64,000 bases of DNA from NCBI RefSeq assembly GCF_001457795.1, contig NZ_LN898211.1, forward strand, positions 627,038-691,037, read 5' to 3'. Made by a program: the position numbers and the translations under genes. The notes below the pieces were generated by a model. It was not told the origin of the DNA and did no database searches. It worked only from the letters and a program-made list of their open reading frames with translations. Source of the DNA: Olsenella massiliensis (lineage in GTDB: Bacteria; Actinomycetota; Coriobacteriia; Coriobacteriales; Atopobiaceae). Each line of letters starts with the position of its first letter. Positions within the stretch are counted from its first letter, which is position 1. Shown here one piece after another: positions 25,580 through 64,000 of the stretch.

Positions 25580-26455
25580 TCAGTCCATGACCGGGTGACC
25601 CGGAAGCCAGGTGATCTGGGGCAGTCTGGTGTAACCCGGATCCCCGGGGTCGCCCGCGCCGTCCCAGCGCTCGAGCCTGTCCGATCCGAGATCAATCTGG
25701 CTATCCCTGACTTCCTGCTCTATATAGTCGAGGGAGGGGGGCTTGGGGCCGCGGCCAGAGGGTACGGTCTGGGAGACGTCGAGGGTGAAGAGGTTTCCCC
25801 ACTCGTACGGGACGAAGCCTTCCATGCCCGCGTACACGTCCATCCGCCTGCCGAGCCCCCACACGGCCCCGAGGAACGACCTCACCGCCCCCGCCCAGGA
25901 GCTCGCCGAGCCGTCCCGTGGGAGCATGAGTGTGACGGCCAGGCCAGGGCGGGTGTAGCCGTTGTGGAGGTACGCCTCGAGCTCGGAGGGTCGCCAGTCG
26001 CGCTCGCCCATGTAGGGCTCCGAGAGTCGGGCACTGTAGCCGGCGAGCCCGTCCGTCCCCCGCGCCGCCTCGAGGAAGGGTTCCTCGAGCTGCGGCTTAA
26101 ACCGGTACTGGGTATAGTCGTCCATGAGTGGGTAGCTGAGCCTGCGCGTGTCGGCGTGCGTCGCCACGGTGCAGCCGAAGGGCTTCTTGGGGTCGGCCGC
26201 GGGACGGGCGCACAGCTCGTACTCCAGGTGCCGGGAGTCCGGCTCGTACGGTGTCACCCCGGTCCCTGGCTCCTGCTCGAACTCCTCTCCGTAGCGCCCG
26301 CCGAGCTCGCCGAGCGCCCAGGCCAGAGCGTCCTCGGGGCCGCCGATTGTGACGTCGGGAACCTCCCCGCGACGCCCCGAGCAGCCCTGGGCGAGCGCGC
26401 CGCCCGCGAGCAGAAGCGACGCGCGGAGGAGGCCCCGTCTGGTCATGGTCACCAT
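25580..26455 (-). CDS. putative lipoprotein, last gene of the type VII-like module (candidate immunity protein)
   Basis: A 291-residue protein with a signal peptide and lipobox-like end (LLLAGGALAQGC). The leading TRRGLLR is a possible twin-arginine motif. After the Cys comes a soluble domain I do not recognise, with repeated Trp/Tyr/Pro-rich stretches (DWRPSELEAYLHNGYTRPG, VPYEWGNLF). It starts 3 bp after the LXG-like effector gene, so it is in the same operon. In known LXG systems an immunity gene follows the toxin, and some immunity proteins (for example TipC) sit on the outer face of the membrane. A lipid-anchored immunity protein would imply an envelope-acting toxin; that is inference. 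An alternative start is the ATG 9 bases downstream. Confidence 0.7.
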   Translation of the reverse strand: MVTMTRRGLLRASLLLAGGALAQGCSGRRGEVPDVTIGGPEDALAWALGELGGRYGEEFEQEPGTGVTPYEPDSRHLEYELCARPAADPKKPFGCTVATHADTRRLSYPLMDDYTQYRFKPQLEEPFLEAARGTDGLAGYSARLSEPYMGERDWRPSELEAYLHNGYTRPGLAVTLMLPRDGSASSWAGAVRSFLGAVWGLGRRMDVYAGMEGFVPYEWGNLFTLDVSQTVPSGRGPKPPSLDYIEQEVRDSQIDLGSDRLERWDGAGDPGDPGYTRLPQITWLPGHPVMD

Positions 26456-26458
26456 TCC

Positions 26459-28105
26459 CTACCTTTCCCAGTTGATTTTGAGCGCTCCATCCTCCTGGAG
26501 CCGTGCGTCCACGCCGTGCTCCTTGAGGGCGTATTCCATGGCATCCTGCAAGCCTTTGTCCTCAAAGCGCATCTCGCCCGTTACAGAAAGGTCCTCTTGT
26601 CGATATCCGGGCATATAACCTCCATTTGGCTTGGTTGGAACAAAACCACTTAAGAAAACCCAGTAACCTTTGCCCACATATCGCTCGAGATGCTTCGTTC
26701 CTCGCGTGTTGACGGTGATTTTCTTATAGGGCGCGTCGCTTCCCGTGACTGCCTCATAGGTGGTGAAGATGCTCTTTGTCTGCTGCGCTGACAGCGTGTC
26801 CAAATTATCCCTGACTTCCTGTGGGGTGAGATTGATGTGTTGCTCGCTCTTTGTGGTCGGCAAATCCCGCGCATAGAGCGCAATCTCACCACCGTAGGTG
26901 AGCCCTGCGGCATAGGTGCCGTCCCACGTTTGGAGACGATATTCCTTTTTTCCATAAGAAAAGGTCGTGACGTGCGTGTCTAGGTCCATGCCCAAGAATG
27001 GTCCCGCAAACTCGATCCAGTCACCGTATCCGTTTTTCTTTTGGACGCTGCCATCAACATCTTTCGAATAGAAGACTCCATCATCTGCCGTGAACGAGAG
27101 GAGGGAAGTTACCGGTCCAAGACTTTGTCCGTTGACCAGATTAGTGCCATTTTCAACAAAATCCTCCAGTTGCGAGGCAGTGCCCAAGTGACCCAAGGAA
27201 AAAATGCCAGATAGATTCGAAAGGAGTGAGCTGAGCGCCTCGTGTTCGATTCTGTCAACCACTGGGGATTCCTTGACCATCATGTACAGGAGCGCATAAC
27301 GCTCGTCAGGAGTCAATCGTATGATTTCGTTGGGGGCACCATCGTCGAGCAGTGACCTAAGGGCAATGCCAAGAAGATCCTTCATGCGCCCCTCACCACC
27401 CAGGCGAAATCCCACGATGTTGCCCCGATCATCCAACATGAAATAGCGCTCAAGCGTGGCGCGATTACGTTTTCGCTGCCATGACTCGTCGTGTTGGATG
27501 ACCCAAGAAAGGTCAATCTGGGAAATGTCAAACGCTCCGACGGAGCCCCTCCGGATGACGGCAGAGAGCGCCTGCCGCTGTTGGGCAAGTAGGGTGCAAT
27601 ATGCGTAGCTGTTGGCGTAGATGCCGCCATCATGGAAGTATTCAATGGCAACGCGAAGCTTCTCTTCCAATTGGCGCGCCTGGTCAGCAAGAAGGTCGCC
27701 AAAGGAACGCATTCCCTGTGCCACGACAGGGCTATGTATGCTCAGCCTGCTTGCCTCGTCATACAGGGAGGACGCCCAGCGCCGCCTTTCGTCAACCGCC
27801 TGAGATATGGCGTCAGTGTCGATGGTGGCACCTAGCGGCAGGAGCTTGGCCGCGACGTTCTCTCGATCATGGGAAAGGTCGCTGATAAACGCAAGCAGGA
27901 AGTCTCTATGCAGAGAGATGGAGGGCATTCTCACTCGTGCAAGATAGTCCCTCAAGGAGGCATATGCCTGAGACTCTCCCGCAGACACGTCCATGATGAC
28001 GCACGAAAGGGCCTCTTCCTGCCTCCCTGCGTCATCCGTTGCCTTGTTTGCGGTCATGAGGTCATGCGAGATGTCGGTAAGAAGCTGAGTGACATCAGCT
28101 CTCAT
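26459..28105 (-). CDS. LXG-like type VII effector with DUF4474-like domain
   Basis: A 548-residue protein. The first 200 or so residues are predicted helical with long amphipathic stretches (QLLTDISHDLMTANKATDD, DERRRWASSLYDEASRL). This, with two small helical genes ahead, matches the LXG targeting domain plan. A region at about residues 339-415 resembles DUF4474 (DGVFYSKDVDGSVQKKNGYG, YGKKEYRLQTWDGTYAAGLT, GGEIALYARD), a domain seen in secreted Firmicutes proteins. The C-terminal 130 residues are unassigned. No signal peptide is seen, as expected for a type VII substrate. ATG 28105 overlaps the stop of the small gene ahead by 4 bases (ATGA). No EssC or other secretion-channel gene is in the window. 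Confidence 0.65.
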   Translation of the reverse strand: MRADVTQLLTDISHDLMTANKATDDAGRQEEALSCVIMDVSAGESQAYASLRDYLARVRMPSISLHRDFLLAFISDLSHDRENVAAKLLPLGATIDTDAISQAVDERRRWASSLYDEASRLSIHSPVVAQGMRSFGDLLADQARQLEEKLRVAIEYFHDGGIYANSYAYCTLLAQQRQALSAVIRRGSVGAFDISQIDLSWVIQHDESWQRKRNRATLERYFMLDDRGNIVGFRLGGEGRMKDLLGIALRSLLDDGAPNEIIRLTPDERYALLYMMVKESPVVDRIEHEALSSLLSNLSGIFSLGHLGTASQLEDFVENGTNLVNGQSLGPVTSLLSFTADDGVFYSKDVDGSVQKKNGYGDWIEFAGPFLGMDLDTHVTTFSYGKKEYRLQTWDGTYAAGLTYGGEIALYARDLPTTKSEQHINLTPQEVRDNLDTLSAQQTKSIFTTYEAVTGSDAPYKKITVNTRGTKHLERYVGKGYWVFLSGFVPTKPNGGYMPGYRQEDLSVTGEMRFEDKGLQDAMEYALKEHGVDARLQEDGALKINWER

Positions 28106-28527
28106 GAGATATGTCCTCTCCCTGCCGCAAGATTGCTCCAACGTCTGTTGAAGGAGACTATCTCCTCGCCCTTTTGACGTCTTGTTCGTGCAAGCTCGCG
28201 GGCCATTCGCTCCTGTTCCTCCTCGACGTTCTCAGAGAGCTTGCGGGCGGTTGCCTGGACGTCTTCGAGCAGTCTTTGCGTCATGGCAGCTCCTTGCAAG
28301 AAAGCCAGCTCATCCATGACGGCTATGCGGTCCAGAGCGACGCGAAGCGTCTCTTGGCCCTCCTGCATCGCACGTACGCCCCTGCGCAGGCCGTCCTCCC
28401 TTCCTTCAAGCTCCAGCATGCATTGGTTATGACGTCGAGCGAGCGCCTCGGCTTGTTGTACGGACGCATGGCAGGAAAAGCCAGCCTTGTCGTCGGGAGG
28501 CATGCATGTGCGTGACAAAGCGCTCAT
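28102..28527 (-). CDS. small coiled-coil protein, LXG-associated helper type (DUF3958-like)
   Basis: A 141-residue protein, almost wholly helical, with heptad-like stretches (LELEGREDGLRRGVRAMQEG, RLLEDVQATARKLSENVEEE). It is chained by 4-base overlaps to both the WXG100-size gene before it and the LXG-like gene after it. Its position and size match the second helical partner (Lap2/DUF3958 type) of LXG effectors, which binds the targeting domain. The family call rests on context and predicted helicity only. ATG 28527 has a GGGGGAG site. Confidence 0.6.
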   Translation of the reverse strand: MSALSRTCMPPDDKAGFSCHASVQQAEALARRHNQCMLELEGREDGLRRGVRAMQEGQETLRVALDRIAVMDELAFLQGAAMTQRLLEDVQATARKLSENVEEEQERMARELARTRRQKGEEIVSFNRRWSNLAAGRGHIS

Positions 28528-28823
28528 GGAAGCTCCCCCATGCCCACGGTCAGCTTGTTCGCGACTTCCTGGTCGACTTCTCCCAACACCTCGGCGACTT
28601 CACGCAGGGCGCTGGCGTCTTGCTTCACGGCCTGCACATAGCTCTTGGCAGCGTCAAGATAGGAGGATCTAGCTTGGTCGTGCGCACTTGGAGGAAGTCC
28701 GTCAGCGGCACCTGCGAGGGAGGAAAAGCGCACCGCGTCATAGGACGACGTCGCAGTCTCAAGCTGCGAGGCCTGGCGGCACGCTGCCGTGCGGTTGGAT
28801 GTGATGGTACCCGGCAGTCCCAT
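28524..28823 (-). CDS. WXG100-size helical protein (DUF3130/TIGR04197-like type VII partner)
   Basis: A 99-residue helical protein with two long helices ([20 protein letters not shown] and [20 protein letters not shown]). It resembles the small DUF3130/SACOL2603-type proteins that open LXG operons. No canonical WXG is present. ATG 28823 is preceded by GGGGG; an ATG 15 bases earlier has no site. It is the first gene of the four-gene operon, 21 bp from a strong dyad in the promoter region. Confidence 0.6.
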
Positions 28824-53490: not shown

Positions 53491-54013
53491 GCCCTCCTAG
53501 AACCGTGAGTTGCCACACAGACGATTCCAACGGAAGGGACGGCCGCTATGGAGGCTTTACACGAGGAGGCGCTCGCGAGGGCGGGCTACCGGCGCACGTG
53601 CGACTTGCTGGCCGCCGTCGACCCCCGGACGCGGAGCTGCTCGAGGACGCGGCGTCCTCGGCGCTTGCCTACCTCGACTTCCCCCGCGAGCACGTGACGT
53701 GGGCGCGCACGAACAACGTGCAGGAGCGGATGAACTGCGAGGCCAAACGCCGCACGAGGGTGGTCCAGGCGTTCCCCTCGTTCGGCTCTCTCGTCAGGCT
53801 GGTGGGCGCCGTGTGCTGCGACCAGAACGACGCGTGGTTGGCCTCGAGGAACTTCATCGGCGTCAGGTCGCTCGACCCCGGCTACGGGTGCAAGCCGCTG
53901 CCGGAGGAGCCGGGCGGCGTCGACAGGGCGCTGAGGCTCGTCGGAGAGGCGTTCGACAGGAAGAGGAGGGTGGCGTAGCACCGGGGGTGGACTCATGCCC
54001 CCTAGGAGGGGCC
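53491..54013 (+). mobile_element. internally deleted IS256-family element
   Basis: About 520 bp. At the left, CCTCCTAG plus five bases plus TGAGT (53493-53510) matches the inverted right end ACTCA plus six bases plus CTAGGAGG (53991-54009), giving short imperfect terminal inverted repeats. Between them is a transposase pseudogene. A full IS256-family element is about 1.3-1.5 kb, so most of the middle is gone. The hairpin TCTAGGAGGGC/GCCCTCCTAGA (53474-53501) overlaps the left end. Confidence 0.65.
53548..53978 (+). pseudogene. IS256-family transposase remnant
   Basis: The ATG at 53548 opens a frame (EALHEEALARAGYRRTCDLL) that soon leaves the frame of the conserved C-terminal part. That part reads LEDAASSALAYLDFPREHVT, ARTNNVQERMNCEAKRRTRV and SFGSLVRLVGAVCCDQ. 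The NNVQERMN-type segment holds the last acidic residue of the DDE site. The middle, with the first two catalytic Asp residues, is missing, so the element cannot move by itself. Confidence 0.75.
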
Positions 54014-54041
54014 CTGCACCACTTTACTTTTGGTCGGAAAT

Positions 54042-54075
54042 GGAGGGCCCAGTTCTGTCGATGACTGGGCCCTCC
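54042..54075. terminator. hairpin between the IS remnant and the AraL-like gene
   Basis: GGAGGGCCCAGT and its exact complement form a 12-bp stem with a 10-base loop. It lies 64 bp beyond the stop codon of the minus-strand AraL-like gene and could serve as that operon's terminator, although the minus-strand 3' side (GACCAAAAG after TTTCC) has no long U-tract. Confidence 0.6.
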
Positions 54076-54138
54076 TGCGTTTGTGCAAAAAACAGGGCGT
54101 CGCCTCCCTGTCGTAAGGATGGCTCTCTTTAATCAACA

Positions 54139-54975
54139 CTACATGCTCAGCGGTATCTCCTTTACCGATGTGAAGACATGGTTCGGAAGGTATGGGGAGC
54201 TTTGCGCATCATCCAGTGTTGACTCTCCCGAAAGAACCAATACTGAGACGAACCCCGCATTGTTTCCCGCAGCAATATCGGTATAGAGCCGATCGCCTAC
54301 CATGGCGATTTCGCCACGCTGGATTGATTCAAATCCCAGTTCCACGAGCCGCTCCATGAGATAATCCGTGATTGGCGTGTTGGGCTTTCCAATCACCGTG
54401 TCCGGCGTCCTGTTCGAAGACGCTTGGACGAAGGCCATTATCGCTCCGGCGTCGGGGATGAAGCCGCTGGATGTGGGACAATTCAGGTCCGGGTGGGTAG
54501 CGATGTACGGGAGTCCTGACCTAACGAAATCGCATGCCTTGGTCATACTTGAATAGGTAAGCTCGGTATCAAATCCAATGACTACAACTTCGGGGTTCAT
54601 GTCGTCGAGTACTATCCCGCTTGCAAGGAACTCATTCTTCAAGAGCTGGTTGCCGAGAAGAAACACCCGCTTGTTTTGATAGTGCTTGTTCAAATACCAA
54701 GTCGCAGCCTGTCCCGAGGTAATGATTTCTTCATCGCCTATCGCATAGCCCATTGTATGCAGCTTGGAGATATAGCTCGAGGGGTCTTTCGATGAGTTGT
54801 TGGTCAGGAGGATGAATCTCCTCCCACTTCGTTTGATACGATCGAGAAAATTTTTGGCCCCATCTATCCAGGTAGTGTCGAGATAGATTGTCCCATCCAT
54901 ATCCAAGACGAATACTTTCGTCCCGTCAAAGGTAGAGATGGGGCAGCTGTCGACAGGGGGGAGCGTGCTTCTCAC
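54139..54975 (-). CDS. HAD-IIA family phosphatase (AraL/NagD-like)
   Basis: A 278-residue HAD phosphatase. Motif I is VFVLDMDGTIYLD near residue 22, motif II ILLTNNSSKD, the lysine motif is IGKPNTPITDYL, and motif IV is MVGDRLYTDIAAGNNAG. NagD/AraL-type enzymes dephosphorylate small sugar or glycerol phosphates. The start is GTG 54975, with AAGGAG 5 bases upstream; a longer frame adds 23 residues without a site. It lies 75 bp after the AraM-type gene in the same direction, the same pair as araL-araM in B. subtilis, suggesting that it acts on glycerol-1-phosphate or a related product. Confidence 0.85.
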   Translation of the reverse strand: MRSTLPPVDSCPISTFDGTKVFVLDMDGTIYLDTTWIDGAKNFLDRIKRSGRRFILLTNNSSKDPSSYISKLHTMGYAIGDEEIITSGQAATWYLNKHYQNKRVFLLGNQLLKNEFLASGIVLDDMNPEVVVIGFDTELTYSSMTKACDFVRSGLPYIATHPDLNCPTSSGFIPDAGAIMAFVQASSNRTPDTVIGKPNTPITDYLMERLVELGFESIQRGEIAMVGDRLYTDIAAGNNAGFVSVLVLSGESTLDDAQSSPYLPNHVFTSVKEIPLSM

Positions 54976-55050
54976 GTAGACTCCTTCTGCGAAGATGGAA
55001 CGAATTGATGTGCCAGGAGGTGACGAATCGCCTCGTAGCTGCACGCAAAA

Positions 55051-56304
55051 CTACAGTTCTATCATTCTGCTTATCCTGTTGAAGGTTGCCCTTCTTCGTG
55101 CGCTTGGCGAGAACGAGATCAGATTCTTGGCATGAGAAGACGGAATGTCAATCGATTCGAGCGTCTGCTTCATTCCAATGCTGGAATAAAGTGACCGAAG
55201 CGAATCTGCTGTGGGAATGTCCTGCACAACGCCTCTGATGGCTGGCCATGCGGACACGAGCATCTCGGGAGATACCATCTCAATTTCGTCTACGCTGTTC
55301 TCCTGGGCAATCCCTTCGTAGAGTTCATTGCCCCAAAAACCTCGAAGCTCTTCTTCGGAGAAACGACGATATGGAATGACGTGGCTTGAAATATCCTCAA
55401 TCTTGGCGAGTCTGTGGTAGTACTCCGAGATTAGGATCGTGCCGACTCCCACCTTTTCCCCATGCAAGCCTGAAGAATGGATTCTGATGCTCGGCGGCTC
55501 CATCTCGATGGTGTGAGAAATATGATGCTCGGAACCGGAGGCTGGCCTTGAGTTTCCCATGAGCTGCATTGCCAGGCCGGATAGCAAGAGGGCATATATC
55601 AGGTTGGCCGTTGCGGCCTCGTCGCCCTTTGGCACTCGGTTGCAGCACTCAAAGACGGTGTTGACGGCATTCATGGTTAGGTCATTAATTCTCTTACAGA
55701 AATGCTCGCCATTCACGAGGTGAGTAATCTTCCAGTCCGCAAGGGCAGTGAACTTTCCGATGATATCGCCTATGCCAGACAAGGAAAGTCTGAGTGGTGC
55801 AGCGTTTATTACAGACGTATCCGCAATGACGAGTCTGGGCGCAATTCCTGGCATCGTGGTTTTTACGCCCTGCCAGGTCATGGCTGATACTGTCGAGCAG
55901 AAGCCATCGACACTTGCGGCGGTCGGGCAAGCCACAAAGGGAATGTTGAGCTTGTGCGCACAGTAGCGCGTCGTGTCATGAATGGTCCCGCTTCCAATGG
56001 CAACGAGATAGTCCACCTGGTGACCTGAGAGCTTCTCCAAGACCTCTTCGGTGGCATGCTCGTCCGCATGCAAGCCGGTGGGGTTCAGAATCACATCAAC
56101 CTGGGATTTTGGTCTTGTCAGATTACTGGCATCGTATGTGTTCTCGTCATAGATGGTGCCTCTGGTTCCAGAGATAGTGAACTCGTCCATAATGGAATCA
56201 AAGTTTGACATCAAGCCTGAATCAATGAGAGCTGCTTGGGTTGTCATCACATGGTTGGTGCCACATTCGCATTGTCCGCTGAGCTTGGTGCTGTCGATTT
56301 TCAC
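55051..56304 (-). CDS. sn-glycerol-1-phosphate dehydrogenase (AraM/EgsA family)
   Basis: A 417-residue metal-dependent dehydrogenase, interconverting DHAP and sn-glycerol-1-phosphate with NAD(P)H. Recognisable are the nucleotide-binding VAIGSGTIHDTTRYCAHKL near residue 102, FVACPTAASVDGFCSTVSA, the metal Asp in SGIGDIIGKFTALADW, and His ligands in GSEHHISHTIE and HGEKVGVGTI. The reaction is the archaeal lipid-glycerol route. In Bacillus AraM has the same activity. It starts the minus-strand operon with the AraL-like phosphatase and is divergent from PTS operon II. GC is clearly lower than in the left part of the window. Confidence 0.88.
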   Translation of the reverse strand: MKIDSTKLSGQCECGTNHVMTTQAALIDSGLMSNFDSIMDEFTISGTRGTIYDENTYDASNLTRPKSQVDVILNPTGLHADEHATEEVLEKLSGHQVDYLVAIGSGTIHDTTRYCAHKLNIPFVACPTAASVDGFCSTVSAMTWQGVKTTMPGIAPRLVIADTSVINAAPLRLSLSGIGDIIGKFTALADWKITHLVNGEHFCKRINDLTMNAVNTVFECCNRVPKGDEAATANLIYALLLSGLAMQLMGNSRPASGSEHHISHTIEMEPPSIRIHSSGLHGEKVGVGTILISEYYHRLAKIEDISSHVIPYRRFSEEELRGFWGNELYEGIAQENSVDEIEMVSPEMLVSAWPAIRGVVQDIPTADSLRSLYSSIGMKQTLESIDIPSSHAKNLISFSPSARRRATFNRISRMIEL

Positions 56305-56494
56305 TGCCGGCTCCTTTCGCGAGCTATGGCCATCGCAACCCTTTGCCTGTTTTTCAATGGCGCCAGAAGAAGACTCTCAAGCAGGGGAGGCTACCTATGT
56401 TCCATCCGGATGCCTCTCTCGTTCCGCGCGAGAGGAGCGACTCCTTGCAAAGGGCCATAGTAGAGACAGCAAAAGTATAGCTCCCATGAACTAG

Positions 56495-56525
56495 AAAAGA
56501 ACCAATTTGAGTAAAAAAGAACCAA
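56495..56525. promoter_or_regulatory. 11-bp direct repeat at 20-bp spacing, candidate operator
   Basis: AAAAGAACCAA occurs at 56495-56505 and 56515-56525, about two helical turns apart. It lies in the 672-bp gap between the divergent araM-type gene and PTS operon II. Such direct repeats suit regulators that bind in tandem on one face; the regulator is not identified. Confidence 0.45.
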
Positions 56526-56640
56526 GTGGTTTTTACACCCGCATAACTGAATTTATACGCCAGATTCAGGATGGCGATGAGGAATACACTAGAATCGACA
56601 CCACCGGACGAGGCGCGAGAAGGGGTTTCGTACTATAGGA

Positions 56641-56880
56641 CCAGTTGAATTAATTAATACAAAATTACTTAATAATGATATAAATATAGCTTCATATAAT
56701 GAAGAATCCTCTTTATATGGCTCATAGGACATATATAAACCACTCACTGACAAAAAACTACCATTCATAGCAATACCACTGGTACTAAATAATAACAATG
56801 TACTTATTTGTACTAATTGGAAGATTATATGTGATAGAGTCAATTCATAAATTGAAGGAATGTACACCTTAAAACCACTG
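56641..56880. other. very AT-rich intergenic island
   Basis: A hand count gives 66 G or C in 240 bases (27.5%), against about 65% in the left-hand genes. A 92-codon open frame crosses it on the minus strand (56867-56589), but its product is a hydrophobic, low-complexity sequence without a known family and without a convincing ribosome binding site. It may hold promoters for the divergent operons or be a foreign insert. Confidence 0.7.
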
Positions 56881-56976
56881 GAATTCTAAGAGCGATATCA
56901 GTGTGGTGGCTCACTGCGAAACCTAGGGGTTTTGTCAGGAAAAATTAGTGCTATTTCAGGGGGAGGGGCAATAGTG

Positions 56977-57420
56977 ATGAAATTTGTTTTGGTGTCGCAC
57001 GGAGATTTCGCGAAGGGATTGCTCAGCGCGGCAACCATGCTTCTCGGCCCACAGGCGGAAATAGAGGCTGTTGGTCTCTATCCGCAGGATGAACCAGAAT
57101 CGTTTCGCACAAGGTTGGAGGCAGTCCTCCTTCCGGAAGATGAGGGGAATGTCATCTTCTTCTCTGACTTATTCCACGGTACTCCCTTCAACGTAGTGAC
57201 TGACCTCTCGCGTGATCACGATATCTACCACGTCACCGGTGTGAACCTCGCCGTCCTTCTCGAGGCCCTACTTTGCAGGAGTGATCCTGGAATCTCGTGC
57301 CAGATCGTTTGTGACAACGCGATAACTGCTGCGAAGGAAAGCGTGCTCGATGTTCGAGAGCTTCTTTCAAGCAATATTGAAATTGAGGACGAAAACGAAA
57401 TCGAAAATGAGGAGTTCTAG
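56977..57420 (+). CDS. mannose-family PTS EIIA, operon II
   Basis: A 147-residue EIIA. The phospho-His site is FVLVSHGDFAKGLLSAATML (His 8), with FFSDLFHGTPFNVVTDL as in the family. The C-terminus is strongly acidic (EIEDENEIENEEF). ATG 56977 has a GGGGGAGGGG site; an in-frame TTG 45 bases earlier is unsupported. It opens the second PTS operon, where EIIA is first, unlike operon I. Confidence 0.9.
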   Translation: MKFVLVSHGDFAKGLLSAATMLLGPQAEIEAVGLYPQDEPESFRTRLEAVLLPEDEGNVIFFSDLFHGTPFNVVTDLSRDHDIYHVTGVNLAVLLEALLCRSDPGISCQIVCDNAITAAKESVLDVRELLSSNIEIEDENEIENEEF

Positions 57421-57451
57421 TTCGTCACAGCGTTGGAAGGGAGTGGAAGTA

Positions 57452-57952
57452 ATGAGAAATGTGGTCTGGTCTCGTGTCGACGATCGTCTGATTCATGGGG
57501 AGGTGGTCACGGCATGGACTCCCTCAATGAACGCCAATTGCATCTTGATTGTTGACGACGGAGTTGCCGCTGACACCTTTAATAAGCGTGTGATCAAATC
57601 TCTGGCACCTGCGGGTGTCAAGGTCTTCGTTATCACTGTCGAGAAGGCCGCCGAACGCCTTGTCGCAGAGGGAAGGCCCGGGGAGCGCATCATCGTTCTC
57701 ACTAAGTCTCCCATCGCCTTCGCCCAGCTTATTGACGCTGGCGTTCCCATTCGGCAGGTGAATCTCGGGGGAATGGGAATCAGGGGGAATCGCCGGCCCT
57801 TTGTTAAGAACGTATCTGCTTCCCCGGAAGAGGTGGATGCAATCGAGCGGATGAGGGAGAAAGGAGTGCGCGTTTTCTATCAGCTTGTTCCCGAGCAAGG
57901 GGTTACTGAAGTAGACGATGCAATTATCAAAAAGTATAGGTCGGAGGCATAA
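57452..57952 (+). CDS. mannose-family PTS EIIB, operon II
   Basis: A 166-residue EIIB. The phospho-His site is WSRVDDRLIHGEVVTAW (His 14). ILIVDDGVAADTFNKRVI and VRQVNLGGMGIRGNRRP-type segments follow (here IRQVNLGGMGIRG), as in fructose/sorbose-type IIB proteins. ATG 57452 follows GGGAGTGGAAG. EIIC begins 2 bp after the stop. Confidence 0.92.
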   Translation: MRNVVWSRVDDRLIHGEVVTAWTPSMNANCILIVDDGVAADTFNKRVIKSLAPAGVKVFVITVEKAAERLVAEGRPGERIIVLTKSPIAFAQLIDAGVPIRQVNLGGMGIRGNRRPFVKNVSASPEEVDAIERMREKGVRVFYQLVPEQGVTEVDDAIIKKYRSEA

Positions 57953-57954
57953 GA

Positions 57955-58743
57955 ATGGCACCAATTCAAGCTTTGCTGTGTGGCATTGTCTATTGGCTCG
58001 CAGTGGGAAACCTTCCCTTTGTTGGCCTGTGGTCCCTACAGCGCCCATTAGTCTGTGGCTTTGTTACAGGAATCATCCTTGGCGACCCCCTCCAAGGCGC
58101 GCTAATCGGCGGGACGATTAACCTTGTCTATCTCGGCTTCATCTCGGCAGGTGGATCAATGCCTGCGGACATGGCGCTCGCGGGTATTCTTGGCACGGCT
58201 TATGCGATCGTAGGCAATATGGGTGCCAATACGGCTCTCGCTCTTGCCGTTCCAATCGGCATTCTTGGAACTATCGTCTGGTATCTCCGTATGACCTTTG
58301 ACTCGATCTTTGTTCACATTGGCGATAGGTACATCGAGAACGAGCAATACAACAAGATCTGGCGAGCCAACGTGCTGTTCCCCCAGATGTTCTGTGCAGT
58401 TATCGCTGTGATTCCCTGTGCGTTGGCGGCATACTTTGGAGCTGCCTACATCCAGGGACTCCTTGACGTGGTTTCCGGTCGAATTCTGACGGTCTTTGAG
58501 GTTATCGGCGGTCTTATGCCTGCACTGGGAATCGGCATAACACTTCAGTATATCTATAAGGGGCCTGCTCGCGTGTTCCTGTTCATGGGCTTCATACTTG
58601 CGGTCTACTCAGGAATGGGATTGCTCCCGCTCGGTATCATCGCTGCGCTTGTTGCCATCATCTACGTGCAGGTAACTGCAACTGTTGGATCAGCTACCCC
58701 AGCCATTGAGGGCGCAACTGAGGATGACGAGGAGGAATTCTAA
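57955..58743 (+). CDS. mannose-family PTS EIIC, operon II
   Basis: A 262-residue membrane component. Family segments are RPLVCGFVTGIILGDPLQGA, INLVYLGFISAGGSMPAD and FPQMFCAVIAVIPCALAAY. The acidic C-terminus is EDDEEEF. The TAATG junction overlaps EIID by one base. It resembles sorbose/fructose-group IIC more than the classical mannose one by eye only. Confidence 0.91.
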   Translation: MAPIQALLCGIVYWLAVGNLPFVGLWSLQRPLVCGFVTGIILGDPLQGALIGGTINLVYLGFISAGGSMPADMALAGILGTAYAIVGNMGANTALALAVPIGILGTIVWYLRMTFDSIFVHIGDRYIENEQYNKIWRANVLFPQMFCAVIAVIPCALAAYFGAAYIQGLLDVVSGRILTVFEVIGGLMPALGIGITLQYIYKGPARVFLFMGFILAVYSGMGLLPLGIIAALVAIIYVQVTATVGSATPAIEGATEDDEEEF

Positions 58744-59600
58744 TGGCGCAGGACAACAATACCGTGATGGCCCGTGAAGGCGGACTCGTCACCAAGAAGG
58801 CCCTTTTGCATGCGTGGTTCAACTGGGAGACGTTCGTACAATGCTGCTATAACTACGAGAGGATGATGGGGCTGGCGTGCGCTCACGTTTTCGTCCCCAT
58901 TATCTACTGCCTGTATAAGGATGACCCATCGAAGCGCAAAGCCGTGATGCGGCGTGAAGCAGAGTTCTTCAACGTGCACATTGAGTTCGGTGCCTGCATC
59001 CTCGGTTTGGCGATTGCTCTCGAAGAGCAGATGGCAATGGGGGAGGATGTTCCTGGGGAGCTTATCACCAATCTCAAGACTGCTCTCATGGGTCCTCTGG
59101 CCGGCGTTGGCGACACCATTTGGCAGGGCGTCGTCATCCCCATTCTGTTAGGAATTTGCATAGACCTCACTTTGAAGGGCGCAGGAATATGGGGGCCGAT
59201 TCTCTACACCATTCTCATTTGCGGCGGCGCATATGCTTTTAGCTACATCAACTTCATGTTTGGCTATCGCGCAGGTAGCGAGGCGGTGCTGAACTTCATA
59301 GAGAGTGGGAAGCTGGACCAGGTTTTAACAGGCGCCTCCATCATGGGTTGCATGGTTATGGGTGGCCTCATCGTGAACTACGTCAAGGTCACATGCGGCA
59401 TTGATATCGTCACTTCGGGGTCCACGTTTAACATCCAGGCCGACTTCTTCGATCAGGTGCTGCCAAAGGCATTGCCACTGGCAGCCACTATGGGCATTTA
59501 CGCTCTTCTCAACAAGCGTTGGTCGTCCCTTAAGATCATCGGACTGATTGTCGCTGTCGGCATCGTCTTCGGTGCAACGGGCATTCTCACCTACGCGTAA
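58743..59600 (+). CDS. mannose-family PTS EIID, operon II
   Basis: A 285-residue component. The cytosolic part has HAWFNWETFVQCCYNYERMM. The family motif is LKTALMGPLAGVGDTIWQGV near residue 115, and a hydrophobic end is LKIIGLIVAVGIVFGATGIL. It completes the EIIA-EIIB-EIIC-EIID set in four adjacent genes. Confidence 0.92.
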   Translation: MAQDNNTVMAREGGLVTKKALLHAWFNWETFVQCCYNYERMMGLACAHVFVPIIYCLYKDDPSKRKAVMRREAEFFNVHIEFGACILGLAIALEEQMAMGEDVPGELITNLKTALMGPLAGVGDTIWQGVVIPILLGICIDLTLKGAGIWGPILYTILICGGAYAFSYINFMFGYRAGSEAVLNFIESGKLDQVLTGASIMGCMVMGGLIVNYVKVTCGIDIVTSGSTFNIQADFFDQVLPKALPLAATMGIYALLNKRWSSLKIIGLIVAVGIVFGATGILTYA

Positions 59601-59674
59601 CAATCTCTTCGTGGCGTGACGGGTCACCTCCGGTGGCTCGCTACGCCACGCTCTTGAGAAAGGATCATTCCAAC

Positions 59675-60727
59675 ATGAAGGCATGTTTAATGATTGCTCC
59701 GGGTAATGTGAAGGTCGAGGAAATCGAAATGCCTTCCATTGGAAGTAACCAGGTACTCATTGAGGTGAAGGCCGCTGGAATATGCACCAATGACATACGT
59801 GACTACCTTGGGGACTGCGATTACTCATACCCGCGCATTGGCGGTCACGAGTATGTCGGAGTGATTCACTCCATGGGCAGCCGCGTGAACACAAGTCGCT
59901 TTCATGTTGGGCAGAAGGTAGTCAACTACATCATTGACGATTGTAAGGAGTGCTACTTCTGTAAAACGGGCAATGAAAACATCTGCGAGGACTTCCCTCA
60001 CTCCAAGGTTTTTCACAATGAGGATGGAATTTCCGGCTATTGCGGGTTTGCCCAGTACGTCGCCGCAGATGCGAAGGATCTTGTGGGGTATGAGAAACAA
60101 GACTCCTGGGAGAGGATGGCTCTAACGGAGCCACTCGCGTGCGTTGTCAACAGTGTCAATCGAGCCAACATCGAGTTTGGTCAAGACGTCCTCGTCGTGG
60201 GCGGCGGGACAATGGGACTGCTGCACGTGATGCTTGCAGTCAGTCGTGGTGCTCGGGTGTTTTTGAGCGAACCAATGGCTGATCGTAGGAACAAGGCGCT
60301 TGAACTCGGCGCAAGTGATGCCTTTGACCCCACAAGTGTCAATCCGATTCAGACCATTAAGGACCTTACGGGCGGACGTGGGGCGGATGTGGTCTTTGAT
60401 ACCGTTGCGCTGCCGGAAATTGCCGGTCAGGCCATCGAGATGACGGCCCCCTGCGGGACCTGCATCCTGTTCAGCTCCATTCATCCCAATGAGTCCATCC
60501 CGGTTGCCATCAATGCCGTGCACGCTCAGCAAAAGACGATTACGGGCGCAGAAAGCCCAACCGTGCACTCCTTCTATCAAGCAGTGCAACTAATTGATAA
60601 GAAGATAATTGACCCTTTGCCGCTGGTTGAGAAGGTGTTTGACTACACGGACTTCCAGGCCGCCATCGACGAGGCGATGCGTCCCGACACTTATAAGGTC
60701 ATCGTAAAGTTTGGTATGTGGGAATGA
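59675..60727 (+). CDS. zinc-dependent medium-chain polyol/sugar-alcohol dehydrogenase
   Basis: A 350-residue MDR enzyme. Catalytic zinc ligands are Cys in GICTNDIRDYL and the GHE of RIGGHEYVG. The structural zinc site has four Cys (DCKECYFCKTGNENIC). The NAD fold is VLVVGGGTMGLLHVMLA. It resembles sorbitol, threonine or galactitol-phosphate dehydrogenases. In this operon it probably oxidises the polyol phosphate made by the PTS. ATG 59675 has AAAGGA upstream. Its last 4 bases overlap the FGGY kinase start. Confidence 0.87.
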   Translation: MKACLMIAPGNVKVEEIEMPSIGSNQVLIEVKAAGICTNDIRDYLGDCDYSYPRIGGHEYVGVIHSMGSRVNTSRFHVGQKVVNYIIDDCKECYFCKTGNENICEDFPHSKVFHNEDGISGYCGFAQYVAADAKDLVGYEKQDSWERMALTEPLACVVNSVNRANIEFGQDVLVVGGGTMGLLHVMLAVSRGARVFLSEPMADRRNKALELGASDAFDPTSVNPIQTIKDLTGGRGADVVFDTVALPEIAGQAIEMTAPCGTCILFSSIHPNESIPVAINAVHAQQKTITGAESPTVHSFYQAVQLIDKKIIDPLPLVEKVFDYTDFQAAIDEAMRPDTYKVIVKFGMWE

Positions 60728-62223
60728 AATACGTCGTCGGCATAGACCTAGGAACCTCATCAGTAAAGCTTGCGCTTGTCAGCAATGCTGGCGTGCTGGC
60801 GAAGGAGTGCCAACGAGAGTATGAGCCCACTCGTCCCCATCCTGGATGGAAGGAGATTGACCCAGCGCTCTGGTGGGATGCGACATTCGATGGTCTGCGC
60901 GAGCTTCTGTCGGGAGGTCCCGTTGATGTTGCCTGCATCGGAGTCACCGGTCAAATGCATACCACCGTTTTTTTAGATGCGCGTGGAAACAGTATCCGTC
61001 CAGCAATCATGTGGAACGACTCAAGGACCTCGGATATGGTCGGACGTGCCAGAAGGACTCTCGAAGACATCGGAGAGAAGTATCTATCTCAAATCATTTC
61101 CTGCGGGAGTCCCGCTCTGAACCTTCTTTGGCTCAAAGAGAATGAGGCAGAGAATTACCACAGGTTGTACAAGTTCCTCATTGGTCCGGATTGGCTTGTC
61201 CACCAGATGACCGGCTCGTATCTTGGGACGGACTACTGTGAGGCATCAACTTCGTCGCTATTCAATCTCTCAAAGAAAAAATGGTCATATGCGGCGATTG
61301 ACGCTCTCGGCCTTTCGCGTGCGCTCCTGCCGAACGTGAGGAGTAGTGCTGAGATTGCCGGGACACTACACGACGAGTATGCCAAGGCACTGGGGTTGTC
61401 TCGAGGAATCCCCGTCATTGTCGGTACGGGAGACAATCCGGCATCCGCCTTGGCAACAGGTTGTCTGCAGAATAACTTGCCCGTATTGTCACTTGGCACC
61501 TCGGGTGTCCTGATGTTCACACGCCCCCATTTTGACCCTGCATTCAAGGGGAAGAACATTCAGGTCTCACTTCAGGGCAATGACGTAATCAATCTCGTTC
61601 AGGGGACCGTTCAGGCCTGTGGCTTGAGCTTCAGTTGGTGGAACAAATCCATCCTGATGAGGGATAGTTTTGACGAGGTGGAGTCGGAGATTACAGCTGA
61701 ATTCGAACAATCTCCAACGAGAAAACCCCTCATCTACTATCCCCATATTTCCGGGGAAAAGACAATCTATGGAGACGCCTCCCTCACCGGGGCATTTATC
61801 GGCCTGACCAGCGACGTAACGAGAGCTCAAATGACGTTGGCTGTCATGGAGGGAGTTGCGTTCGGGGTATGTCAGCTCGCTGAGGAGATGCAGGTTTCCT
61901 TGACTGACTTTGACGCCCTCAAGGTAATCGGAGGCGGCTCAAAGAGCGACACATGGATGCGCGTCCTGTCGAGCGTCCTCAACGTGACAACGGTACGATC
62001 TGAATCATACGCAAGTGCCTCGTTTGGGGCTGCACTCCTTGCTCTGAGCGCCTTGAGGGGCAATTCATCGCTCGTGCAGCGTAACCTTCCCGTCGATACA
62101 ATGCAGCAGTTTCATCCCAACGAGGGGCTTTTGAGGCACTACGAATCGGTCTATTCAAAGTTTTTGCGTGTTCATGATGCAATCAAGCTTGTCCTTGGGG
62201 ATCGAAGCGAGGTGAGTTCTTGA
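60724..62223 (+). CDS. FGGY-family carbohydrate kinase (xylulokinase-like)
   Basis: A 499-residue kinase. It starts KYVVGIDLGTSSVKLALVS and has GVTGQMHTTVFLD and IMWNDSRTSDMV, as in XylB. ALKVIGGGSKSDTWMRVLSS matches the C-terminal FGGY signature region near residue 400. It would phosphorylate a ketose (xylulose type). Its partners are a PTS, which already makes phosphosugar, and a bisphosphate aldolase, so the order of steps is unclear. ATG 60724 overlaps the dehydrogenase stop (ATGA); a GTG 6 bases earlier is possible. Confidence 0.85.
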   Translation: MKYVVGIDLGTSSVKLALVSNAGVLAKECQREYEPTRPHPGWKEIDPALWWDATFDGLRELLSGGPVDVACIGVTGQMHTTVFLDARGNSIRPAIMWNDSRTSDMVGRARRTLEDIGEKYLSQIISCGSPALNLLWLKENEAENYHRLYKFLIGPDWLVHQMTGSYLGTDYCEASTSSLFNLSKKKWSYAAIDALGLSRALLPNVRSSAEIAGTLHDEYAKALGLSRGIPVIVGTGDNPASALATGCLQNNLPVLSLGTSGVLMFTRPHFDPAFKGKNIQVSLQGNDVINLVQGTVQACGLSFSWWNKSILMRDSFDEVESEITAEFEQSPTRKPLIYYPHISGEKTIYGDASLTGAFIGLTSDVTRAQMTLAVMEGVAFGVCQLAEEMQVSLTDFDALKVIGGGSKSDTWMRVLSSVLNVTTVRSESYASASFGAALLALSALRGNSSLVQRNLPVDTMQQFHPNEGLLRHYESVYSKFLRVHDAIKLVLGDRSEVSS

Positions 62224-62813
62224 GAGAGAAAGCTACCTGCGATATATGTGGAAAGAAGCTCGGTTTTAGGAAGTTTAAATATAGCACTGGGGTAATTTGC
62301 AAGGACTGCTATAAGCTCGCTTCCGAGAGCTACACAACGACTATTGCGGAGAAAACATTCGATGAGGTGATGGCTGCTTACGACAGGCGCAAGAGCCAAC
62401 TCGAGAGCGATGTGAATTTTTTGCCGACGAAGCGCGTCGCCAACTACCTTCAGATTGACGAGCGGCGCGAATTGATTTGCCTGCCCAACAATCGCTTGAT
62501 CGGATTGATAGCAGGCGATAAAGAGGGACTTTCTGCTCCAGAGTACATTAAGTGGGCGGATGTGTACGCCTGCTCAATCGTTACAACTCCCCGCCTGACT
62601 CAAAGTCAGATGCGTGGAGAGGGAATCGCCGAAGGAACCACCATCTCCTCGCTTTCGGTGGAAATCAAGACCCGTCGTCCCAAGGCCTCCCATGTCATTT
62701 GCTTCTTGAAAAACAAGACTAGAGTAAAGAGCTTTGCCTTCAGACACACGTTTGATTTGACAAAAAGGTGTGTGGATATGGTCAATCAGTACTGCATTGG
62801 CAAGGAGTCTTAG
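62220..62813 (+). CDS. DUF4428 zinc-ribbon protein in the PTS operon
   Basis: A 197-residue protein. An N-terminal DUF4428-type zinc ribbon (CDICGKKLGFRKFKYSTGVIC and CKDC, four Cys) is followed by a linker and a domain resembling short bacterial PH-like modules (RRELICLPNNRLIGLIAGDK). The start is TTG 62220, overlapping the kinase stop by TTGA, with GAGGTGAG upstream. No catalytic role is known. Its location inside a sugar operon is unusual and could mean a regulatory or sensing function. Confidence 0.75.
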   Translation: MREKATCDICGKKLGFRKFKYSTGVICKDCYKLASESYTTTIAEKTFDEVMAAYDRRKSQLESDVNFLPTKRVANYLQIDERRELICLPNNRLIGLIAGDKEGLSAPEYIKWADVYACSIVTTPRLTQSQMRGEGIAEGTTISSLSVEIKTRRPKASHVICFLKNKTRVKSFAFRHTFDLTKRCVDMVNQYCIGKES

Positions 62814-62902
62814 GCCGCGCATTCGGCTCCATCGGACGAGCAGCGCCGTAGCGCAAAAAAGAGCATGAGATTACAAGCGCGTTGTTGAAAATGGAGGACG
62901 CT

Positions 62903-63742
62903 ATGGCTTTGGTAGATATGAACGAACTCGTGACAATCGCAAAAAAGAACGATGTTCTTCTGCCGGCATTTAATACGACCAACCTTGAAATGACACTGGC
63001 AATCATGGACGCATTTGAGCGCGCCGGAATGCCGGGAATTATTCAAATCGCGCCAACAAACGTGAGGCTGTCGGGATATGAGTACATCTCTACTATTGTG
63101 CATATGGCGGACAAAAGCTATAGCGTCCCCTTTGCGCTCCATCTTGATCATGGCAAGACGATTGATGATGTCAGAAATGCTGTGAATGCGGGCTTCACAT
63201 CGGTAATGATTGATGGAGCGGCGCTGCCCTTTGAAGAGAATATCCTGTTCTCGCGACGCGCGGTCGACTACTGTCACTGCAAGGGCGTGCCGGTAGAGGC
63301 AGAGCTTGGGGCAATTAAGGGCAAAGAAGACGACCACGTATCCGAGGCGGATTTGAAGACTGATCCCAGCCAGGTGAAAGAGTTCGTTGAGGGGAGCGGC
63401 TGCGATCTTCTTGCAGTTTCCGTCGGAAATGTCCACGGTCTTGAGGACACCCCAAAAATCGATCTGCCCCTCTTGGAGAAGATATCCGCAGTTAGCCCCT
63501 GCCCGCTTGTTCTCCATGGTGGATCTGGGATTGAGTACTCGACAATCTTTGCTATGAAAAAGTACAACATGGTTAAGATTAACATCGCCAGCGATCTTCG
63601 CCGCGCCTTTATCAGCTCTGTCGGCAAAGCGTATGAGGCAAATGCTATGGAGCACAATCTTGCCAAGGTGCTTCTTGAGGCACGCTCGGCCGTAACCGAG
63701 GTTGCTTACAAGACCTTGCTTGCTATCAATGGCATGGAGTAA
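62903..63742 (+). CDS. class II ketose-bisphosphate aldolase (fructose/tagatose type)
   Basis: A 279-residue zinc aldolase. Metal and catalytic segments are FALHLDHGKTIDDVRNAV near residue 75, VEAELGAIKGKEDD near 137, VSVGNVHGLEDT near 177 and LVLHGGSGIEY near 205. It cleaves a ketose-1,6-bisphosphate to DHAP and glyceraldehyde-3-phosphate; tagatose versus fructose preference cannot be told. ATG 62903 has GGAGGACGCT upstream, which decides against the TTG at 62882. It closes the operon, 89 bp after the DUF4428 gene. Confidence 0.9.
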   Translation: MALVDMNELVTIAKKNDVLLPAFNTTNLEMTLAIMDAFERAGMPGIIQIAPTNVRLSGYEYISTIVHMADKSYSVPFALHLDHGKTIDDVRNAVNAGFTSVMIDGAALPFEENILFSRRAVDYCHCKGVPVEAELGAIKGKEDDHVSEADLKTDPSQVKEFVEGSGCDLLAVSVGNVHGLEDTPKIDLPLLEKISAVSPCPLVLHGGSGIEYSTIFAMKKYNMVKINIASDLRRAFISSVGKAYEANAMEHNLAKVLLEARSAVTEVAYKTLLAINGME

Positions 63743-63816
63743 GGGCAATTTTTTCGACAGAAGGCCACTACCATTCCGAGCTTAGGGACGAAGGATCGGT
63801 GCTGCTAGATTCGAAT

Positions 63817-63855
63817 TTTGCGTGATATGCGTGTCTGCACATTACATAACGCAAA
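63817..63855. promoter_or_regulatory. dyad in front of the last partial gene
   Basis: TTTGCGT (63817-63823) and ACGCAAA (63849-63855) are exact inverted copies 25 bp apart in an AT-rich part of the terminal gap. It is a possible operator for whatever begins at about 63911. Confidence 0.35.
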
Positions 63856-63910
63856 GTGATAGCAAGCTGACGCGAAGGGGTAGTAGGCACGAGGGAGCTG
63901 GAGCGTCTCA

Positions 63911-64000
63911 ATGGGCATCTTATCGAGTCAGGCTACGCCTGGAGACTATACGGCTGAGGTATTTAAGCCGATAGACTCTCGTGACATGTATATCTGGGAT
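63911..64000 (+). CDS. start of a possible gene cut by the window end
   Basis: An ATG at 63911 opens 30 codons that stay open to the last base (MGILSSQATPGDYTAEVFKP, then IDSRDMYIWD). GGAG lies 7 bases upstream. It is too short to assign. Confidence 0.35.
   Translation, partial: MGILSSQATPGDYTAEVFKPIDSRDMYIWD

What the first reader, a model, noticed from the sequence alone, without database searches (positions are those of the whole stretch)
25580..28823. Type VII LXG-like toxin module in an actinobacterial setting, with a lipoprotein as probable immunity protein
Four tightly linked minus-strand genes (two 4-base overlaps, one 3-bp gap) follow the LXG operon plan of Firmicutes: a WXG100-size protein, a helical helper, a long effector without signal peptide, and a final gene. 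The effector carries a DUF4474-like region and an unassigned C-terminus. A lipobox and possible twin-arginine signal on the final gene suggest an immunity protein outside the membrane and so an envelope target. LXG modules are mainly described from Firmicutes.
Basis: partly seen in the sequence, partly recalled or inferred. Interest (0 to 1): 0.75.

Follow-up and report, generated by a model that had tools for sequence, protein, structure and literature searches.

The report
Probable secreted toxin and immunity lipoprotein
A four-gene set in an actinobacterium most likely makes a protein weapon, two small escorts for its export and a surface-anchored antidote, and a similar set in distantly related Gram-positive bacteria suggests that an unnamed protein domain is a bacterial toxin that works outside the cell membrane.

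Summary
In detail: four intact minus-strand genes with two 4-base overlaps and one 3-base gap. The reading is largely right, with limits. About 90 kb away the genome carries a nearly complete T7SSd-type export locus. Gene 1 fits TIGR04197 (25.8 bits, cut-off 26; 2 of 5 coriobacterial relatives above it). Gene 3 has a divergent LXG-like N-terminus (no Pfam LXG hit, no L-X-G motif, but profile match 93.7% and best structural match TelA-LXG) and a DUF4474 C-terminus above cut-off. Gene 4 is a lipoprotein. In ten of ten DUF4474 toxin loci the next gene is a lipoprotein: g4-type in seven, probably in an eighth, other kinds in two. One locus, in Enterococcus termitis, shows the four-gene plan with a true LXG domain. 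I read DUF4474 as a toxin acting outside the membrane, neutralised by a surface lipoprotein. Its chemistry is unresolved; the modelled fold has no clear PDB match. LXG-like toxins with T7SSd are in print (PMC11217815); DUF4474 is named in no held paper.

The parts
28524..28823 (-). g1, WXG100-like targeting partner (Lap1-like, TIGR04197 type), 99 aa
   Evidence: TIGR04197 25.8 bits, cut-off 26, E 1.1e-5; ten-row profile A8, which includes two Hespellia rows, matches EsxA chains 2vs0/2vrz over positions 1-90, E 4.3e-4; L030 35.1 and L041 31.7 bits
28102..28527 (-). g2, helical second partner (Lap2-like) by position, 141 aa
   Evidence: No family above cut-off and no tblastn match better than E 0.33 in the loci searched; same position and 4-base overlaps in L030; aligned at 20-31% identity with candidates in L030, L026, L027, L033 (homology not tested)
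27476..28105 (-). g3 N-terminal LXG-like export domain, residues 1-210
   Evidence: hhalign 93.7%, E 2e-7 to a four-row Bacillota LXG set; VIA Z 9.6 to TelA-LXG; the same domain heads long RHS proteins in relatives
27143..27475 (-). g3 middle region, residues 211-321
   Evidence: Part of the stretch 198-548 shared with L038 (G330, 34% identity) although the N-termini differ
26459..27142 (-). g3 C-terminal DUF4474 domain, residues 322-548, probable toxin
   Evidence: PF14751 33.1 bits, cut-off 23; same domain ends an RHS protein in L026 and LXG-type genes in two Bacillota
25580..26455 (-). g4, lipoprotein, probable immunity protein, 291 aa
   Evidence: Signal sequence and lipobox by eye; a g4-family protein follows the DUF4474 toxin in 7 of 10 loci, probably in an eighth

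Best explanation
The four genes are an antibacterial toxin-immunity cassette of a T7SSd export system. g1 and g2 bind the LXG-like N-terminus of g3 and form the export signal (inferred from published Lap work). The T7SSd ATPase exports g3 (inferred). The C-terminal DUF4474 domain then acts on a neighbouring Gram-positive cell from outside its membrane, most likely by binding or altering an envelope component with a polar site around the invariant residues D362, D376 and E407 (inferred). g4 is exported, anchored at the outer face of the membrane as a lipoprotein, and binds the DUF4474 domain so that the producer and its kin survive (inferred from gene order and co-occurrence). Shown here: gene order, homologies, presence of the export genes, lipoprotein signals.
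For: Own genome has T7SSd genes: kinase, WXG100 protein (E 2.1e-21), FHA plus FtsK/SpoIIIE ATPase, Ig-like protein. In 150 relatives g3 or its N-terminus is matched in 7 and the ATPase in 25, and all 7 lie among the 25 (hypergeometric P 1.6e-6, kinship not corrected). N-terminus: profile match to LXG 74.1% and, with L029 added, 93.7%; the first profile against the g2 and g1 families gave 0.06% and 0.6%. The C-terminus swaps scaffold: short LXG-like proteins and an 1800-residue RHS protein both end in DUF4474. Enterococcus termitis has, by position and size, both partners, then LXG (1.1e-7) plus DUF4474 (4.4e-14), then a lipoprotein. Lipoprotein directly downstream in 10 of 10 DUF4474 toxin loci. 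In L021 a detached toxin C-terminus (64-column match) sits directly before a second g4 copy, as in polymorphic toxins. Five small genes downstream of long proteins that share the N-terminus but have another C-terminus (L024, L025, L028) have no lipobox, and the three measured have a strong membrane helix.
Against: No experiment. g3 fails Pfam LXG and lacks the L-X-G motif. g2 matches no Lap family. The full g3 model is weak (mean pLDDT 62, pTM 0.47), and TelA-LXG stands only just above unrelated helical folds (Z 9.6 against 9.2; Foldseek E about 1). The cassette is not at the T7SSd locus in this genome. The Enterococcus lipoprotein is not detectably related to g4 (2.9%). The downstream genes examined beside the other toxins were not in every case the very next gene (L024).
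Confidence: 0.73

Rival explanations
1. g3 is a type VII substrate but not a toxin: an envelope-binding or adhesion protein, with g4 as its lipoprotein receptor or partner.
For: DUF4474 has no known activity, and the C-terminal model resembles beta-sandwich domains only weakly.
Against: Detached C-terminus with its own g4 copy in L021, scaffold swapping with RHS, a second g4 copy in L033 and g4 fragments at T7SSd loci of G001 and G004, all usual for toxin-immunity pairs.
Confidence: 0.13
2. The toxin works inside the target cell and the lipoprotein is not its antidote but a neighbour or a delivery aid.
For: No biochemical link between g3 and g4; some LXG toxins have cytoplasmic targets, for example EsaD (PMC12744356, passages).
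Against: No other candidate antidote gene in the operon; a lipoprotein next to DUF4474 in 10 of 10 loci from two phyla.
Confidence: 0.1
3. The DUF4474 domain is a membrane-inserting, depolarising toxin like TspA or EsxX.
For: Extracytoplasmic immunity fits: TspA and extracellular EsxX are met by membrane-bound immunity proteins (PMC12744356, passages).
Against: No hydrophobic or glycine-zipper segment: the highest 19-residue Kyte-Doolittle mean in residues 322-548 is 0.67, against 1.67 in the glycine-rich protein at the T7SSd locus of the same genome; predicted mostly beta.
Confidence: 0.12
4. The operon is inactive or not linked to T7SSd.
For: It lies about 90 kb from the T7SSd locus; g3 has a lower G+C than its surroundings.
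Against: All four frames are intact; in L022 and L031 the related toxin gene starts within about 2.2 kb of the ATPase gene (the L031 ATPase is judged by its likeness to that of L022).
Confidence: 0.1

Closest known systems
LXG polymorphic toxins of T7SSb with Lap partners (TelA-LapA3-LapA4, PDB 8gmh)
   Same: Small helical partner genes, toxin with N-terminal helical domain, immunity gene, in this order; structural match of residues 1-218 to TelA-LXG
   Different: No Pfam LXG hit, no L-X-G motif, T7SSd instead of T7SSb, uncharacterised toxin domain
TslA-TilA, T7-secreted lipase with immunity lipoprotein (PMC10730906, abstract start and passages)
   Same: Lipoprotein as immunity protein, extracellular toxin action
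   Different: TslA has the toxin domain first and the LXG-like domain last; TilA is a DUF576 tandem lipoprotein; g3 has the usual order and no lipase domain hit
T7SSd of Olsenella uli and LXG-like toxin of Olsenella sp. HMSC062G07 (PMC11217815, abstract, passages, sections 9 and 15)
   Same: Same type of export system and the same kind of N-terminus
   Different: The toxin is only mentioned in the text seen; whether it carries DUF4474 was not checked
Enterococcus termitis LXG-DUF4474 operon (L035)
   Same: Two small genes, LXG-DUF4474 gene, lipoprotein gene in this order
   Different: True LXG domain; small genes matched no family; lipoprotein not detectably related to g4

Membership tests
LXG toxins (PF04740) | Pfam LXG domain at the N-terminus above cut-off | tested here: not met
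   No hit for g3 up to E 5 nor for residues 1-210 up to E 1; 3 of 9 family members match, best E 0.021
LXG toxins (PF04740) | L-X-G motif | tested here: not met
   By eye: g3 reads VSAGESQAY where the relative L029 reads RLSGEAY (sequences)
LXG toxins (PF04740) | Remote homology or shared fold of the N-terminal domain | tested here: met
   hhalign 93.7%, E 2e-7 with L029, 74.1% without; controls with the latter profile 0.06% and 0.6%. Of the four LXG rows two were confirmed by Pfam. VIA Z 9.6, rmsd 4.3, 197 aligned to 8gmh_B from a weak model. Against: no match to the single L041 LXG domain (0.5%)
LXG toxins (PF04740) | Lap1 gene upstream | tested here: met
   g1 TIGR04197 25.8 bits (cut-off 26), E 1.1e-5; 2 of 5 coriobacterial relatives above cut-off
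LXG toxins (PF04740) | Lap2 gene upstream (DUF3958 or similar) | tested here: inconclusive
   g2 has no such hit; L026 candidate DUF3958 14.6 bits, cut-off 26.3
LXG toxins (PF04740) | Export by a type VII system | not testable with these tools
   Export genes present
DUF4474 (PF14751) | Score over the curated cut-off | tested here: met
   33.1 bits, cut-off 23, profile positions 13-87 of 240
T7SSd | ATPase with FHA and FtsK/SpoIIIE domains | tested here: met
   FHA E 1.3e-13, FtsK_SpoIIIE E 1.8e-43
T7SSd | WXG100 protein, kinase and Ig-like envelope protein at the locus | tested here: met
   WXG100 E 2.1e-21, Pkinase E 8.2e-43, Big_13 E 3.4e-14; the Ig-like region appears in two overlapping ORFs
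T7SSd | TsdH, single-helix membrane protein | tested here: inconclusive
   195-aa ORF at the expected place, no family; helix not tested
Toxin-immunity pair | g4 blocks toxicity of g3 | not testable with these tools
   Gene order and co-occurrence only

The most novel reading that the evidence does not exclude
DUF4474 is an unrecognised toxin family that acts on the Gram-positive envelope from outside. It is paired with lipoprotein antidotes of apparently more than one origin, and it is shared by Bacillota LXG operons and Atopobiaceae T7SSd cassettes on two delivery scaffolds (LXG-like and RHS). T7SSd would then be an antibacterial weapon.
Probability: 0.55. Interest if true: 0.62.

Novelty: new variant of a known kind. 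Interest (0 to 1): 0.5.

Why it matters
It gives T7SSd, named in only one paper of the library searched, a concrete testable substrate with its partners and probable antidote, and it points to a function for an unnamed Pfam domain. The link between DUF4474 and surface lipoproteins predicts where the toxin works before its chemistry is known.

Tried and rejected
Viral contigs: 84 pattern matches, none a relative. Plasmids and phages: no match for the DUF4474 domain of the window (plasmids), of Enterococcus (plasmids) or of Hespellia (phages). PDB sequence search with the g3 profile: two weak matches to A49R, E 0.15 and 0.2; with the N-terminal profile nothing better than E 0.025. Fold of the toxin domain: Foldseek no match at E 0.001 or less; best VIA Z 6.5 to MspA, rmsd 4.9 over 101 residues, tied with other folds, so not used. 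P19/FetP matches of the full model (Z 6.0) likewise not used. The L041 LXG domain alone against the window N-terminal profile gave nothing (0.5%), although L041 matches the LXG set (97.7%). g4-family HMM: Hespellia lipoprotein only at E 0.057, below the inclusion threshold; Enterococcus lipoprotein not listed up to E 1. Insertion site: the neighbouring phosphoribosyltransferase has its only clear homologue in the other four same-genus genomes in G003 (54%), so no empty site was shown. Promoter and terminator scans: no more than chance. No second copy of the N-terminal domain in the own genome. DUF4474 in the phylum sample: 1 of 396 genomes, the own one; in the class sample 6 of 296, own included.

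Rows dropped: L022 and L023 come from contigs of the same lengths as L032 and L033 and were counted once; L027, whose RHS frame is broken, is not among the ten loci. L033 has a frame-broken g4 after the toxin and an intact second copy. In L026 the lipobox of the very next gene was read by eye. My notebook entry wrongly equates L030 with L021: they are 88% identical and from different genomes. In one search the matches in G017 and G044 are fragments without toxin, and that in G045 looks like a chance frame.
Full report
Observation. Four minus-strand genes lie at 28823-25580, between an iron-type alcohol dehydrogenase and a phosphoribosyltransferase. All frames are open; g1/g2 and g2/g3 overlap by four bases, g3/g4 are three bases apart. 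g3 has 53.9% G+C and g4 69.9%, against 62.9% for the window.

Organism and export system. The window lies at C13:627038-691037 of G000 (1,818,711 bases in 13 contigs, 97% complete). The family is probably Atopobiaceae: the same-family genome G089 has a contig of the same length, 196,264 bases, as the Atopobiaceae MAG record behind L032. About 90 kb after the cassette, C13 carries a kinase, a 195-aa gene, Ig-like protein ORFs, a 97-aa WXG100 protein and a large protein with FHA and FtsK/SpoIIIE domains. This is nearly the T7SSd set of PMC11217815 (abstract, passages, sections 9 and 15 seen); the TsdH identity is not settled. That paper finds T7SSd only in Actinomycetota and mentions an LXG-like toxin gene at the T7SSd locus of Olsenella sp. 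HMSC062G07.

g1. TIGR04197 at 25.8 bits, cut-off 26. Of eight further g1-type proteins scanned, four exceed the cut-off (L030, L041 and both Hespellia copies), three fall below it (L032, L033, L026), and the Enterococcus one has no match to it. A ten-row profile matches EsxA (2vs0) over its length at E 4.3e-4.

g2. No family above cut-off and no tblastn match better than E 0.33 in the loci searched. It is called a partner by position, size and overlaps only.

g3 N-terminus. Pfam LXG is silent for g3 (3 of 9 family members match, best E 0.021). With the relative L029, itself at LXG E 0.002, the family profile matches a four-row Bacillota LXG profile at 93.7%, E 2e-7; without it at 74.1%, E 2.8e-5. 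The latter profile against the g2 and g1 families gave 0.06% and 0.6%. In the AlphaFold model (mean pLDDT 62) residues 1-218 best match TelA-LXG 8gmh_B (Z 9.6, rmsd 4.3, 197 aligned; Foldseek probability 0.97 but E about 1). Unrelated helical folds follow at Z 9.2, so this supports but does not prove the LXG fold. I call the domain LXG-like.

g3 C-terminus and relatives. A search of 150 relatives matched g3 in 7, the own genome included: over most of its length in G000, G027, G087 and G089, in part in G001, G004 and G119. A scan of genome contigs gave six loci: Olsenella sp. Marseille-P4559 (53%), RUG440, RGIG5762 and RUG002 (42-39%), a Hespellia MAG (30%, residues 332-539) and Enterococcus termitis (23%, residues 95-537). 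The Enterococcus protein has Pfam LXG (1.1e-7) and DUF4474 (4.4e-14); the Hespellia gene, split in two frames, has LXG (4.6e-10) and DUF4474 (2.7e-14) in its two pieces. G330, of another family of the order, has an LXG N-terminus (97.7% to the LXG set) and the same C-terminus. L026 joins an LXG-like N-terminus, RHS repeats and DUF4474 in one 1800-residue protein. Thirteen residues are invariant in nine sequences, among them D362, D376, E407, W394, Y398, Y411 and W482. The domain model (mean pLDDT 70, pTM 0.70) is mostly beta, has no clear PDB relative and no hydrophobic segment.

g4. In ten of ten loci with a DUF4474 toxin (window, L021, L030, L031, L032, L033, L041, L034, L035, L026) the next gene has a lipoprotein signal (window and L026 read by eye). 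Seven are g4-family: window, L021, L030, L031, L032, L033 (frame-broken, with an intact second copy) and L041 (99.4%). The Hespellia one is probable (60%, E 8.7e-5 over 187 columns; HMM only E 0.057). The Enterococcus one is not detectably related (2.9%). The L026 one is of the kind read in its close relative L027, DUF5104 at 27.2 bits (cut-off 27), which matches g4 only in the signal region (9.4%). A lipoprotein of a neighbouring lipase gene as control gave 0.2%. So lipoproteins of at least two kinds without detectable relation accompany the same toxin domain. In L021 a second g4 copy (91.9% identical) follows a detached toxin C-terminus.

Co-occurrence. A g4 search of the 150 relatives matched 9: six are among the seven g3 genomes. 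G119, matched only by the N-terminus, has none. G017 and G044 have fragments without g3 or ATPase match; G045 is a likely chance match. In G001 and G004 the g4 matches are fragments at the T7SSd locus, not next to their DUF4474 proteins; they do not count for the pairing. Long proteins with the same N-terminus and another C-terminus (L024, L025, L028) have small genes downstream without lipobox (five looked at); the three measured have a strong membrane helix. Only L024 was scanned with Pfam (RHS, Amidase_6), and the L024 small gene is not its very next gene.

Mechanism. Inferred from Lap and TslA-TilA work (PMC10730906, start of abstract and passages): g1 and g2 escort g3 into the export channel, the DUF4474 domain attacks the envelope of a neighbour from outside, and the lipoprotein g4 protects. 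The exact target is open. Against a membrane-inserting toxin stands the lack of a hydrophobic segment.

Novelty. The kind (type VII toxin with partners and immunity gene) is known, its occurrence with T7SSd is in print, and lipoprotein immunity is in print for TslA. 'DUF4474' occurs in none of 5.39 million held papers, 'T7SSd' in one; a six-term search for coriobacterial LXG work showed nothing relevant among 12 listed of 409. New, as far as these searches reach, are the reading of DUF4474 as a toxin, its g4 immunity family and the two-phylum distribution. On recheck the best-explanation confidence was lowered from 0.74 to 0.73, because g2 homology and the downstream-gene contrast are weaker than first written.

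Noticed in passing
L008 1236-2687 and 5006-5275 (G000 C13 about 760736-762187 and 764506-764775): Second likely type VII effector at the T7SSd locus, 483 aa with a glycine-rich hydrophobic stretch; its last 35 residues recur exactly at the end of a small ORF about 2.6 kb downstream, as in detached toxin tips.
   Followed up: partly
L022 12489-14144, L023 5306-6934, L063 5122-6678: Mbeg1-like proteins, each preceded by a lipoprotein-like gene (lipobox by pattern in L022 and L023, by eye in L063). They recall the reverse-order TslA-TilA pair; the C-terminal domains were not tested.
   Followed up: partly
L008 4562-4837, L022 6166-6447, L031 7918-8199, L033 18051-18326, L063 7352-7633: A conserved gene of about 93 residues at or near T7SSd loci may be the ubiquitin-like YukD protein that PMC11217815 reports as absent from T7SSd. 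One of four scanned has a weak YukD match (14.3 bits, cut-off 27); no PDB match.
   Followed up: partly
L024 3522-8792, L025 3788-9011, L028 4943-9925: Long proteins with the LXG-like N-terminus; L024 has RHS repeats and Amidase_6. L025 and L028 are broken in frame. Small membrane-anchored proteins lie downstream and may be immunity proteins.
   Followed up: partly
L063 6710-7138, L064 11954-12373, L061 6085-6513: Fragments of g4-like genes without toxin, two of them inside T7SSd loci.
   Followed up: partly
L007 7847-10567 and 10374-13625: The Ig-like T7SSd component of this genome appears in two overlapping ORFs; frameshift or two genes not resolved.
   Followed up: no
window 54001-64000: G+C falls to 0.48-0.54 in the last 10 kb; possibly a foreign segment.
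   Followed up: no
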